Shown here: piece by piece, positions 8,824 through 48,400 of the stretch
How the letters are laid out: the number at the start of each line of letters is the position of its first letter
Numbering within the stretch: the first letter of the stretch is position 1
NCBI GenBank assembly: GCA_030062745.1
Contig: CP099848.1
Coordinates: forward strand, 16,107,081 to 16,171,080
Reading direction: 5' to 3'
DNA length: 64,000 nucleotides
Source of the DNA: Capitulum mitella
Taxonomy: Eukaryota; Arthropoda; Thecostraca; Pollicipedomorpha; Pollicipedidae
Notes under the pieces: model-generated
Seen by the model: the letters and a program-made list of their open reading frames with translations, nothing else
Database searches by the model: none
Told to the model about the DNA's origin: nothing
Program-made: the position numbers and the translations under genes

Positions 8824-9085
8824 TGCGATTCTTCGTTCACAGTAGTCTGGTAGTAGTTTCACAATAGTCCATGAGCTGCGATTCTTTGCTCACAGTAGTC
8901 GAACTCCGGTATATGTCGTCCCCGCCAGTGGTAACTGTTAATGTCTTCGCGTCTCCTGATCTCCCCCGTTCCGCTCCAGCCCGGTGGCGGCGGTCCTCAG
9001 CTTCAGTTGGGTGGGGGCGGTCCTCCGTCCCAGCCCGGTGGAGGCGGTGGTCCCCGCTCCATTGCAGCCCGCTGATGGCGAGCCT
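8824..9085 (+). repeat. Short tandem duplications upstream of the PKC exon
   Basis: Two near-identical copies of GCGATTCTTCGTTCACAG occur 54 bp apart (about 8824 and 8878). After them come three related GC-rich copies of a CAGCCCGGTGGAGGCGGT-type unit between about 8975 and 9060. Several contain AG preceded by pyrimidines, so they resemble degraded acceptor regions just before the true-looking acceptor at 9109-9110. Confidence 0.6.
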
Positions 9086-9114
9086 CGTCTGACCCCTTCC
9101 CCATTTGCAGCAGG

Positions 9115-20578
<11,464 letters not shown>

Positions 20579-42259: not shown

Positions 42260-42400
42260 ATGGCAACCAGCGTGCGCCAGCAGATGGCCGACTACTGGGC
42301 TCAGTTCGCCGAGCCCACCATCGAGAACATGATGCTCAACGAAGACGCCCGCCAGCTGGCCGAACAGGAGGAGACCGAGATCCTGGACTCGGTGCCGCAG
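42260..42400 (+). CDS. PMT: PMT exon 1
   Basis: ATG start, 47 codons, donor CCGCAG|GTGAAT. It encodes MATSVRQQMADYWAQFAEPT and an acidic helix. The motif YWxxFxxPTIExMML is typical of PMT N-termini. Confidence 0.8.
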
Positions 42401-45400
42401 GTGAATGGTAGCAGAGTTTAAAATGTTATTCACGGTGCATCAGGTAAGGTAACGGTGGACCAATATCCTGGATTCGGTGCCCCAGATAAGTATATCCTGG
42501 CAAGGGTCAAGGTTCTGGAGCGGTATTAAAGTTCAGTGGCACCAGGTTGAAGCTATATCGCTCAAAGTGGTGAGAAAGATTCGACTCACTTAAGATTAAC
42601 ACAAGGAAGTGCAGGTGTTTTTTTTTGTCATCTGTTTAGTTCCCCCCTGTTTCTGCTGCTGCGACGTCGCCCAGCGGCCTTCCGATAGCTAATTTGGACG
42701 TAAATCCAGCTCCTCAAACTCTTCACACGCGTTGGATTCACCGTCTGTCACGGTGAGTCCGACGTGCCACTGATATTGACCGCCGGCCCCAGGTCAGCGG
42801 ACGTGGCACTGACAGTGACTCCCGGCCCCAGGTCAGCGGACGTGGCACTGACAGTGACTCCCGGCCCCAGGTCAGCGGACGTGGCACTGAGTGACTCCCA
42901 GCCCCGGGTCAGCGGACGTGGCACTGACAGTGACCGCCGGCCCCAGGTCAGCGGACGTGGCACTGACAGTGACTCCCGGCCCCAGGTCAGCGGACGTGGC
43001 ACTGACAGTGACTCCCGGCCCCAGGTCAGCGGACGTGGCACTGACAGTGACTCCCGGCCCCAGGTCAGCGGACGTGGCACTGACAGTGACTCCCGGCCCC
43101 AGGTCAGCGGACGTGGCACTGACAGTGACTCCCGGCCCCAGGTCAGCGGACGTGGCACTGACAGTGACTCCCCGGCCCCAGGTCAGCGGACGTGGCACTG
43201 ACAGTGACTCCCGGCCCCAGGTCGCGGCGCAGGTCAGCGGACGTGGCACTGACAGTGACTCCCGGCCCCAGGTCAGCGGACGTGGCACTGACAGTGACTC
43301 CCGGCCCCGGGTCAGCGGACGTGGCGACAGTGACTCCCCCCGGTCAGCGACAGTGACTCCCGGCCCCAGGTCAGCGGACGTGGCACTGACAGTGACTCCC
43401 GGCCCCAGGTCAGCGGACGTGGCACTGACAGTGACTCCCGGCCCCAGGTCAGCGGACGTGGCACTGACAGTGACTCCCGGCCCCAGGTCAGCGGACGTGG
43501 CACTGACAGTGACTCCCGGCCCCAGGTCAGCGGACGTGGCACTGACAGTGACTCCCGGCCCCAGGTCAGCGGACGTGGCACTGACAGTGACTCCCGGCCC
43601 CAGGTCAGCGGACGTGGCACTGACAGTGACTCCCGGCCCCAGGTCAGCGGACGTGGCACTGACAGTGACTCCCGGCCCCAGGTCAGCGGACGTGGCACTG
43701 ACAGTGACTCCCGGCCCCAGGTCAGCGGACGTGGCACTGACAGTGACTCCCGGCCCCAGGTCATGCGGACGTGGCACTGACAGTGACTCCCGGCCCCGGG
43801 TCGGGGACGTGGCACTGACAGTGACTCCCGGCCCCAGGTCAGCGGACGTGGCACTGACAGTGACTCCCGGCCCCAGGTCAGCGGACGTGGCACTGACAGT
43901 GACTCCCGGCCCCAGGTCAGCGGACGTGGCACTGACAGTGACTCCCGGCCCCAGGTCAGCGGACGTGGCACTGACAGTGACTCCCGGCCCCAGGTCAGCG
44001 GACGTGGCACTGACAGTGACTCCCGGCCCCAGGTCAGCGGACGTGGCACTGAGTGACTCCCAGCCCCGGGTCAGCGGACGTGGCACTGACAGTGACTCCC
44101 GGCCCCAGGTCAGCGGACGTGGCACTGACAGTGACTCCCGGCCCCAGGTCAGCGGACGTGGCACTGACAGTGACTCCCGGCCCCAGGTCAGCGGACGTGG
44201 CACTGACAGTGACTCCCGGCCCCAGGTCAGCGGTATGCGCGTGCTGGAGCTGGGAGCCGGCATCGGCAGGTTCACCAGGAAGCTGGCCGAACGCGCGAAG
44301 CACGTGACTGCTGTCGACTTCCTGGAGACATACATCGAAAAGAACCGGCAGACTAACGGCCAAATGGGCAACATCGAGTTTCTCTGCGTGGACGTGACGC
44401 AGCTGAAGGTGGAGAGTGGGCAGTACGACATGATCTTCAGCAACTGGCTGCTCATGTATCTCTGTGACGAGGAGATCGACAAGCTGGTCAATGGCATGCT
44501 CAAGTGGCTGAAGCCCAATGGCTATCTCTTTATTCGCGAGTCGTGCATCAAACAGTCGGGTAATTTCGAGAAGGCATTCTTGCAAGCGCGCGTCATTGCA
44601 TGCAAACCAGCATTTTTGGACCGTTTCATCACTGCTTAGACTTGTGGTTTTATCCATTTGTTTTTCTCGTCTTTCTATAACACGGACGGACACATTTCTT
44701 TGAAATCTGTTCAGGTCTTCAATGCCGTGAAGTAGTTCGTAGCCTCCACAAAGCATTGCCAGAAAATCATTACAAGCTTGTTGAGGGGAACACTGGACTC
44801 CTTGACAACACGTTGTTGCGCACATGGCGGAAAGTCCTCCCTGTTCCAGGCAACAAGAAGCGTCAGACGAACCCGACCTTCTACCGGAGCCCGACGCTGT
44901 ACTGCAGCCTTCTGCAGGGGCCCAGCATAAAAACGGCTACATCGGAACACCGGTTTACCCTGCGTTATGCCGCATCTGTGGACGTCTTTGTCAAGGTCAC
45001 AGCCATTTCACGTCTCTCGATGCGCTTGTCATAGCCGAAAGGGACCAGGAAGGCACATTTCGAGCAATGCTTCTCATGACGGCATAGCAGAAAATACCAC
45101 GTGGGGAGCCACGTGGTATTTTCTGCTATTGTATCGCAAGTATTTTGCTGCCTTATGCATTGGTAAGCATAATGGAAAAGAACTGAAACGCGGTGCGAGC
45201 AGATCCATTGTACAGCAGTATGGCAAATCTTTGAAATGCGGGACGAACGCTGCGCTTCCTCTTCGTAATATTATGTAAACAGCAGTCCACTTCCACAGTA
45301 CTACGGCAATCCGTACCAGTTGCTATACCTTCTGCGAAAGACTCCGACCAGCGACTACTTCAGCAGTTTCCAGAACTTCCTGGACGAGCACCAGTACTCC

Positions 45401-48400
45401 CTGAACAGCATCCGACGGTACGAGAGGATGTACGGGGATTCATTCGTCAGCACAGGAGGTCTGCAGACCACAGAGGTGAGGAGCCAGGTCTCGCCTCAGA
45501 GCCTGTCTTCAGTGACGAAGCCACCGGTTATGTGACGCCTTCACCTGCAGTGAGTCATAGCGGTGCCGGGGAAAATGGCAGAAGGGGCAGGCTGACTCCG
45601 TCGCTCAGGAACATTTGGCATTGTCTCCATGGTGATGTATGAGAAAGAAGGTCCTGAAATGTTTTTCGCCTCCCTGGTCCTGCTGCTGGTACTTCTGATC
45701 TGAAAGCGGGTGGCTTCCGTTATCGAAGAGCATGAGATAAAATTGATTTAGCTCAATTCAGAGTGGTTCTTCAGTTTCAATTTCTGTCAGGAGTCAAATG
45801 ACGCAGATACAATCTGAACGCGACTCTCTAAGGACCTGGCTGCGAGCGCGTGCTCCCAGCAGGTGCTGGACTCGGTCCGAACCGGACATGTGCTGGACTC
45901 GCTCCGGACCAGACGTGTCTTAACATTTTCTAGGGGCGTAGCCAGGATTTCCTCAAGGAGGGGGCCAGAACAAACATAACCCTTCTCGAAACTGAAAGCT
46001 CGTCGGATTTCGGCCAATTTATTTTCGAGCCCCGGCAATTTTCATGTATTTTGATTCTTGACACGTAAAGAAACGTTCAACTTTCATACCGATGGGAACG
46101 GCTATGGCCTCCTTGCCCCCCTTGGCTACGTCCCTGTCATTCGATCACAGCGGGTTGACCTGGTGACAGAGTCTCCGCCGCCGGCTGAGTAGGCTGTGGC
46201 TGAGCTGACAGAACCGCGAGTCAGACAGCTTCTGACACTGCGCCGCGCTTGACACATGCTCCCGTTTGCAGAGCCTGTGCCGGCAGCTGGGGCTGGGGAC
46301 GACCAGCCGCGTGCTGGACGTCGGCACGGGTCCGGGCGGCTCGGCCATCCACATGGCCAGCCGGTACGGCTGTCACGTGACCGGCATCGACCTGTCAGCC
46401 AACATGGTGACGGTGGCGCTGCAGCGACAGTCGGCGCTCCCGGCCGCAGTGAGTACGGCGGAGCCGAGGCTTCTTAGAGAGACTGCGGCCCGGCTGGCAG
46501 CAATCGGAAATTCGTTCACGAGTTGAGTTAGAGGTATTTGACGAGGCTGGATGGGTGCAGCGGATGGCCGTTTGATGTTATTGTATGTACACGAAATCAC
46601 GTTTTCTCTCGTAGGGGGGAAACACCTGGAAAATGGTAGTTTTGAAGCCGGTGCTAGCATTAAAGCGGTTGTCGTTCTATCTCGCAGTAAGGACGAGAAC
46701 ATTGTAAACTTATTTCACTTTCGTAAATGATCGACATGCGCTCCGTTTTGAGACAATGACTGAGTAATGGCGCACCCAGAAGCTTTGTACAAAAAGTTAA
46801 GGATTGACCTTTCTGAAACGGTGACGCCTGGCCCTGAGACACTCTGTTCACATGACGAGGTAAAGAACCCTGATGCCTAATGTTCATATGACAAGGCTGC
46901 GGTTGCCCACCCCTCTGTTCAACGATGAGGGACCCAGCCCCGCTGCCACCATCTGCTCATCATCATAAATCATGAGGGACCCAGTCCCGGTGACGTCCTC
47001 TACCTGATGAGGGACCAGGTCCCGGTGACGTCCAGCGCGCCGCCGCCAGGTGCGGGACCAGCTGCGCTTCGAGATCAGCGACATCACCGAGCGGGAGTAC
47101 AAGGACGGCAGCTACGACGTCGTCTACAGCCGTGAGATGCTCCTGCACGTCGACGACAAGCGGGCCGTGCTGGCCAAGTTCTGGCGCTGGCTGCGGCCCG
47201 GCGGCCGACTGCTCATCACCGACTACTGCCAAGGCGACGGCCAGCTGCGCAACGAGTTCCTCGAGTACAAGTCGACCAGAGGTGGGCGCTGGCGGGCGAC
47301 GGTAGCAGGCAGAGCGGCGAGGGTTCGGAGGGCGCGCTATGTCGTCACGTCCAGCGTCTGTGGAGTAGAGCTGGGAGCGTGGGCAGGCAGTGAGCGAAGA
47401 CAGCTTGTTTTGCCGCTGGCCGTCGCTGAGCGACCGCACGGTCCGGCGAACGATAGCTGCGATCAATCACTCCATGGTACGAGTAGAGCGCTGGTACAGT
47501 ACAACAAAACTTTGACGCAAGCGTGCCTTCGATGTGGGTGACGCTCATGCAGGACAAGACGTGCGTCTCCTCTCTATGACAAACATGCATAACGAAGCCG
47601 CCTGCCACGGACGTCGCCATATTACAAGCATGTGTTTCAGTTCCATTCGAGGAGCCCCCCGTCCCGCCACCCACTATACGTACTCCCTCTTACACATACG
47701 TGCGATGTTGGAACAGTAAGCCCACACGCCTGACATAGACTTCCGGCCTCGGTTGCAGGCTACAGCATGGTGACGCTGTCCGATTACGATCGGCTGATGC
47801 AAGCTGTTGGCTTCAGCGACGTCCAGGTGCAGGACAAGACGGACAGCTTCCTCACGATCCTGCAGCACGAGTTGGAGCAGTTCCGCAGCCAGCGGGAACG
47901 CTTCGTGGCGGTGAGGAACATCCTCTCAAAATTGACCGTCACAGCACGCGCCACCCAAAGCTCACTACTTCAGATTTTTACGCCCAGCACTCATTTGAAT
48001 AGCAGCGTGGCACCATTAGATGTCCTGAAGAGATATCAAACCATTAGTGTAGTCTCTGCGAGGGATGCGGGTAACGTTTCCCGCAGTTTTCCAGAAGTGG
48101 TGATTTGTAACGTCCGGTTTTTAAGGTATCAAATAGGTATCTCCCATTGGTGACACTCTTTCTTGAGCAATGAAATCTAATAACAAGGATTTCAGCCGAA
48201 GCCGTAGTCATGCACCGCCTCCAAAAAATTAATTTTTGCCCCCGCCTTATCTATTCTTGGTGGACTGCAGTCAGCTTGTTTCCCCATTTTCTGAACTGTG
48301 GCTACACCCGTGGATCAAACATCAGGTGGAAAATTCCCAGTCGTCAACCGGCAGACCTGCACCCTTTAGGAGCAGGTCTGCCGGTTGGTCAGTGTTCTCC

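What the first reader, a model, noticed from the sequence alone, without database searches (positions are those of the whole stretch)
42776..44233. About 37 tandem copies of a 3' splice site in PMT intron 1
Seen: the 39-bp unit contains CTGAC, a C-rich tract, CCCCAG and GTCAGCGG, and the last unit is the real exon 2 acceptor plus its first 8 coding bases. Each unit is therefore a complete minimal acceptor. Because 39 = 13 codons, no unit has a stop and exon 1 ends in phase 0, using the AG at 44186, 44147 or 44108 would insert 13, 26 or 39 residues in frame just before the SAM motif; the next AG (44069) is mutated. Each CAG|GTCAGC is also an AG-GT juxtaposition, like a recursive splicing ratchet point. 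The array could tune splicing, make protein length variants, or vary between individuals. I know of no described case of a minisatellite built from a working acceptor at this copy number.
Basis: partly seen in the sequence, partly recalled or inferred. Interest (0 to 1): 0.8.

Follow-up and report, generated by a model that had tools for sequence, protein, structure and literature searches.

The report
Tandem-repeated splice acceptor in PMT intron
[quoted passage not shown] similar arrangements are already known, for example from amphioxus.

Summary
A 39-bp minisatellite (TRF: 38.0 copies, 42761-44233) fills the 3' part of intron 1 of a bifunctional phosphoethanolamine methyltransferase (PMT) gene. 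Its last copy is the homology-supported exon 2 acceptor (AG ending at 44225) plus the first 8 coding bases. There are 34 intact AG|GT sites: the real acceptor and 33 upstream ones. The three displayed alignments to solved relatives have no gap across the 42400/44226 junction, so the conserved protein uses the last acceptor.

Units carry a possible branch point, a short C-rich tract, AG and a re-usable GT donor. But the kind is not new: amphioxus 'mirages' (minisatellites spanning intron-exon boundaries, with AG/GT in units) and the tandem dual-specific splice sites of human UBC are described. Best reading: a mirage-type minisatellite, mostly spliced out, tolerated because upstream use recreates a donor. 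No RNA data were available, so isoforms, ratcheting and variation between individuals remain untested.

The parts
42260..42400 (+). PMT exon 1 (coding part from ATG), ends in phase 0 with CAG|GTGAAT
   Evidence: joined translation aligns to solved PMTs from query residue 6, 8 or 9 on in the three alignments displayed
42401..44225 (+). intron 1 as defined by homology, 1825 nt
42458..42485 (+). decayed duplicate of the last 28 bases of exon 1 (24 of 28 identical), followed by ATAAGT where a donor would be
   Evidence: (0 of 1000 shuffles of the pre-array intron reach the alignment score)
42728..42766 (+). predicted 17-bp RNA hairpin that covers a strong donor-like site (ACG|GTGAGT, 42752) and overlaps the first six bases of the array
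   Evidence: 1 of 200 shuffles of 42725-42795 as stable
42761..44233 (+). 39-bp minisatellite, 38.0 copies; 34 intact AG|GT sites
42761..42799 (+). first, diverged unit; shares its GACCGCCGG stretch with unit 4 (42908-42946)
44226..44559 (+). PMT exon 2; its first 8 bases GTCAGCGG belong to the last unit; the SAM motif I (VLELGAG) begins at its sixth codon
44850..44995 (+). PMT exon 3 (a first guess starting at 44715 was replaced because 44850 gives the conserved SGNKKRQTNPT)
45299..45475 (+). PMT exon 4
46272..46448 (+). PMT exon 5, start of the second methyltransferase domain (continued near 47029); joined up to 46447

Best explanation
A mirage-type minisatellite: a 39-bp segment covering the end of PMT intron 1 and the first bases of exon 2 was tandemly duplicated and expanded by slippage or unequal exchange. 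Shown: position, copy number, homogeneity, AG|GT at 34 sites, and that the conserved protein needs the last acceptor (44225). Inferred: most mRNAs join 42400 to 44226. The array is tolerated because a join to an upstream intact unit recreates CAG|GTC at the junction, which can be spliced again to an acceptor further down, so early choices are not final; a few mature mRNAs may keep one to three units (13 to 39 residues), and most other products would be frame-shifted and degraded. The array itself probably has no selected function.
For: The array ends within the first 8 bases of exon 2. Gapless alignment across the junction in the 3 alignments displayed, of 54 PDB matches. 27 of 36 units identical; units 3 and 32 share the same 2-bp deletion and two substitutions, the first unit and unit 4 share GACCGCCGG: turnover inside the array. 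The donor score of the unit is comparable with the gene's own donors. A decayed duplicate of the other boundary, the exon 1 end, lies in the same intron; in amphioxus both boundaries can duplicate. Published mirages have AG/GT in many units and are reported not to disturb regular splicing.
Against: No RNA evidence at all. The acceptor is weak and C-rich (3.95, against 8.94, 3.77 and 7.25 for the acceptors of introns 2, 3 and 4), and a much better acceptor-like site lies upstream in the same intron (42639, 8.43). Why the last of 34 nearly equal sites should win is not explained by sequence. GTCAGC has C at +3, rare in donors (recalled). A long ORF (42891-44639, 582 aa) runs through the array into exon 2, so partial coding use cannot be excluded.
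Confidence: 0.7

Rival explanations
1. Splicing ladder: several of the last acceptors are used at real frequency, giving PMT proteins with 0, 13, 26 or 39 extra residues just before SAM motif I, as human UBC gives variable ubiquitin numbers through its AGGT array. (Not exclusive of the best explanation.)
For: 44186, 44147 and 44108 are identical to 44225 over the 20 bases before the junction and keep the frame. UBC isoforms splice stochastically through an AGGT array (abstract and section 7). The insert would lie at the stretch before VLELGAG.
Against: None of the three displayed relatives has an insert there. Only 8 of 34 AGs are frame-compatible with exon 1, so an unbiased choice would waste most transcripts.
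Confidence: 0.2
2. The array is, in some transcripts, coding: a cryptic exon (42640-42752) or an upstream acceptor leads into the 582-aa ORF and makes a PMT with a long low-complexity repeat.
For: ORF 42891-44639 is open through 5 frame-changing units. The possible exon 42640-42752 has good sites (8.43 and 9.70), no stop in frame, and ends in the phase that makes 23 of 34 AGs frame-compatible; with the 8 direct ones, 31 of 34.
Against: The three displayed relatives have no such domain at that place. By hand, five shifts of random sign stay open 1 time in 32, and the test was chosen after seeing the data. The donor at 42752 sits in a predicted stable hairpin.
Confidence: 0.07
3. Assembly artefact: the real array is much shorter, or its variants are consensus errors.
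For: Runs of up to 10 identical units are hard to assemble; some variants are single-base indels (units 10, 25, 26). The amphioxus BflGb6 mirage was reported to be aberrantly assembled in the draft genome (supplement legend).
Against: Distinct variant units lie scattered through the array (units 3, 4, 10, 12, 13, 14, 25, 26, 32), which argues that a true array exists, whatever its exact length.
Confidence: 0.1
4. The array is a regulatory RNA structure that hides upstream acceptors.
For: Two or more consensus units fold into a regular rod on paper.
Against: 247 of 300 eight-unit arrays made from shuffled units fold at least as well.
Confidence: 0.03

Closest known systems
Amphioxus 'mirages' (Adh3, BflGb6, BflGb9, TnC, and the similar PGBD5 repeats)
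   Same: Minisatellite-like tandem copies that span an intron-exon boundary; BflGb6 duplicates the 3' end of an intron plus the 5' part of exon 2; many units carry AG/GT; both boundaries can be affected (PMC3087553 passages; PMC3902484 passage).
   Different: Here 39-bp units at about 38 copies, against 150-160 bp at 6 and 3 copies in the two BflGb6 haplotypes (Adh3 units 10-72 bp; its copy number was not seen). The organism here is unknown; 51% G+C, which from recall does not fit amphioxus.
Tandem dual-specific splice sites (human UBC, VCX3A)
   Same: Array of AGGT units, unit length a multiple of 3, sites that can act as donor or acceptor (PMC10809524, abstract, passages, sections 7 and 9).
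   Different: In UBC the 228-nt unit encodes a functional protein, with 9 units in human and up to 46 reported in a fish homolog; here it is 39 nt of mostly intronic sequence with no conserved protein role.
Intron gain by tandem duplication of AGGT segments (Rogers model; ATP2A1; potato RdRp; fission yeast 24-bp repeats)
   Same: Potato RdRp: duplication across an intron-exon boundary carrying branch site, pyrimidine tract and AG (PMC4974935 abstract and passages).
   Different: No sign here that a new intron arose; the intron seems only to have grown at its 3' end (no relatives to test it).
Recursive splicing (ratcheting) points
   Same: AG|GT juxtaposition that recreates a donor after splicing.
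   Different: Donor is GTCAGC, not the GTRAGT consensus (recalled); intron is only 1825 nt; consecutive units are 39 nt apart, probably too close to be spliced to each other (recalled).

Membership tests
Mirage minisatellites | Tandem repeats spanning an intron-exon boundary and including exonic bases | tested here: met
Mirage minisatellites | Many units carry AG/GT splice signals | tested here: met
   34 AG|GT sites; 4 of 37 regex sites read GG in place of AG
Mirage minisatellites | Regular splicing of the mRNA is not disturbed | not testable with these tools
   no RNA data held
Mirage minisatellites | Length instability and concerted evolution of units | tested here: inconclusive
   homogeneous units and shared rare variants fit turnover; no second allele available
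Mirage minisatellites | Found in cephalochordates | not testable with these tools
   organism not identified; no genome held
Dual-specific splice site arrays (UBC type) | AGGT at the same place in the units, unit length a multiple of 3 | tested here: met
   27 of 36 units exactly the 39-nt consensus; 34 AGGT
Dual-specific splice site arrays (UBC type) | Same site used both as donor and as acceptor | not testable with these tools
   needs RNA; scores only: donor 6.98, acceptor 3.95
Recursive splicing points | Strong pyrimidine tract, AG, then GTRAGT (consensus recalled) | tested here: not met
   short C-rich tract and GTCAGC
Phosphoethanolamine N-methyltransferase (PMT), bifunctional | Two methyltransferase domains in one protein with PMT-like sequence | tested here: met
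   E 1.9e-88 over residues 9-321 of 324; second-domain pieces at 46272 and 47029

The most novel reading that the evidence does not exclude
A high-copy splicing ratchet: exon 1 lands on early units and is re-spliced down the array in steps, with the spread of final landing sites on the last four units setting PMT protein length, and array length (varying between individuals or even cells) setting the delay or yield of mature mRNA.
Probability: 0.12. Interest if true: 0.75.

Novelty: new member of a known kind. Interest (0 to 1): 0.4.

Why it matters
It is a natural experiment in 3' splice site choice: more than thirty near-identical acceptors in a row in front of a conserved enzyme domain, where only a few keep the frame. 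Reading its cDNA would show directly whether the first, the last or any acceptor wins, and whether AGGT tandem repeats are tolerated because splicing can be repeated, as proposed for intron gain and for UBC. If the host is not a cephalochordate, it would show that mirages are not special to amphioxus.

Tried and rejected
RNA rod structure of the array: rejected, since 247 of 300 eight-unit arrays of shuffled units fold at least as stably. Copies of the unit elsewhere: in the rest of the window only exact matches of 10-11 bp at E up to 5; no exact match of the 39-bp unit in viral contigs or of a 31-bp part of it in prokaryote genome contigs, as expected for a eukaryote. Own genome: not held, so no genome-wide count of such arrays and no relatives. 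Organism: no Rfam match at gathering score and no Pfam match in the 5 neighbouring ORFs scanned, of 49 listed; left unidentified. NCBIfam gave only matches below its curated cut-offs among the 25 of 64 families shown, as expected for a library of prokaryote families.

Selection against internal acceptors: among 7 of 9 variant units that were aligned (units 12 and 14, longer than 45 nt, were dropped), the acceptor A is G in 4, at most 3 independent events as units 3 and 32 are copies. It is the only column hit more than once independently, but the column was chosen after the fact, and drift or biased conversion would also do; not claimed. A structure prediction of the 13-residue insert was not run, because the spliced protein is not a contiguous reading of the window. 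Splice scores come from approximate human-like frequency tables typed from general knowledge; they serve for ranking only.

The literature search is limited to open-licence full texts. The original Adh3 mirage paper (PMC117041) is not held; what I say of it comes from later papers.

Full report
What is there. A tandem repeat of period 39 runs from 42761 to 44233 with 38.0 copies. With up to 3 mismatches, the unit occurs 32 times, all inside the array, against 0.00 in shuffles. Cutting at CC[AG]GGTC gives 37 sites and 36 intervals; 27 of 36 intervals are exactly GTCAGCGGACGTGGCACTGACAGTGACTCCCGGCCCCAG, the longest identical run is 10, 33 of 37 sites read CCAG and 4 CCGG. With GCGCAG at 43232 there are 34 intact AG|GT sites.

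Where it lies. The gene is a bifunctional phosphoethanolamine methyltransferase. Joining five exons gives a 324-residue product that matches the PMT structures 5wp5 and 5wp4 (E 1.9e-88 and 2.2e-87; plant enzymes, from recall) and 4krg (4.1e-44; nematode, from recall). In the three alignments displayed, out of 54 matches, the stretch across the exon 1/exon 2 junction (EILDSVPQ|VSGMRVLELGAG) has no gap. The conserved protein therefore uses the last acceptor, AG ending at 44225, and no unit is included. Exon 2 on its own matches Methyltransf_25 at 4.8e-20, and pieces at 46272 and 47029 hold parts of the second domain.

What each unit offers. In the consensus unit CTGAC has its A 19 nt from the last G of the acceptor, and GTGAC 13 nt; then come a short C-rich tract, CCCCAG and GTCAGC. 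In a generic scoring table the acceptor scores 3.95, weak, near that of intron 3 (3.77) and below introns 2 (8.94) and 4 (7.25); an acceptor-like site at 42639, upstream of the array, scores 8.43. As a donor the unit junction scores 6.98, near the real intron 2 donor (6.96), below exon 1 (8.73) and above intron 3 (3.13). Intron 3's donor is GTCACA, so this gene does seem to use a GTCA donor, if the homology-based exon border is right.

Frame. Joined directly to exon 1, 8 of 34 AGs give an open path into exon 2: 43181, 43220, 43232, 43271, 44108, 44147, 44186, 44225. The three before the real one add 39, 26 and 13 residues. The unit is open in two frames (VSGRGTDSDSRPQ and SADVALTVTPGPR) and closed in the third. 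An ORF of 582 codons runs from 42891 into exon 2 and beyond, switching between the two open frames at five frame-changing units. A possible extra exon, 42640-42752, with good sites (8.43 and 9.70), would make 23 other AGs frame-compatible. I take this as probably chance, since the displayed relatives have nothing there and the test was made after seeing the data.

How it arose. Units 3 and 32 share the same 2-bp deletion and two substitutions, and the first unit and unit 4 share GACCGCCGG, which fits duplication or conversion of blocks within the array. In the same intron lies a decayed copy of the last 28 bases of exon 1, 24 of 28 identical; none of 1000 shuffles of the pre-array intron reaches its alignment score. 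So both boundaries of intron 1 appear to have been duplicated. A predicted 17-bp hairpin (1 of 200 shuffles as stable) overlaps the start of the first unit and covers the donor-like site at 42752; whether it helped to start the array is open.

How it most likely works. I think the array is mostly spliced out by a join from 42400 to 44226. A join to an upstream intact unit would put CAG next to GTC (GTCAGC in all but a few units) and so recreate a donor, leaving the product open to a further splice. That is inference: it explains why such an array can be tolerated, but no RNA was available. Direct unit-to-unit steps of 39 nt are probably too short for an intron (recalled), so any ratchet would have to skip units. 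RNA folding does not explain acceptor choice: 247 of 300 arrays of shuffled units fold at least as well.

Compared with the known. Mirages in amphioxus are minisatellite-like duplications of intron-exon boundaries; [quoted passage not shown] many but not all mirage repeats contain AG/GT, and RT-PCR suggested that regular splicing is not disturbed (PMC3087553, passages). Lancelet PGBD5 has similar but imperfect repeats, and the same passage names Adh and TnC (PMC3902484, one passage). Human UBC holds a tandem array of AGGT dual-specific sites that splice stochastically; its homologs are reported with 3 to 46 units; [quoted passage not shown]). Human minisatellites at exon-intron boundaries may form new introns (PMC2812944, passages), and potato RdRp gained an intron by duplicating an intron-exon boundary (PMC4974935, abstract and passages). 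The present array is thus a new member of a known kind. It has more copies than the one mirage whose copy numbers I could read (BflGb6); I did not see those of the others.

Verdict. The interesting part, which acceptor is chosen and whether steps occur, is open and easy to test by cDNA.

Noticed in passing
42458-42485: Decayed duplicate of the last 28 bases of exon 1 inside intron 1, starting 85 bp after the original, followed by ATAAGT in place of a donor.
   Followed up: yes
42728-42766: Predicted 17-bp hairpin with a 5-nt loop at the start of the array, covering a strong donor-like site at 42752.
   Followed up: partly
42640-42752: Possible cryptic exon: strong acceptor-like TTTAG at 42639, strong donor-like site at 42752, no stop in phase 0, 113 nt.
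   Followed up: partly
42443: CAG|GTAAGG, score 11.46, is a stronger donor-like site than the exon 1 donor 43 nt upstream (8.73); reading on from exon 1 meets a stop first.
   Followed up: no
42871-42907 and 44033-44069: Units 3 and 32 carry the same 2-bp deletion and two substitutions, 29 units apart.
   Followed up: partly
15261-15605: Another minisatellite, 41 bp, 8.4 copies, with 13 AGGT on the + strand, 4 of them CAGGT; no gene identified around it.
   Followed up: partly
9076-13299: ORF of 1407 codons that contains a 24-bp tandem repeat at 11083-11478; no Pfam match at E 0.01.
   Followed up: partly
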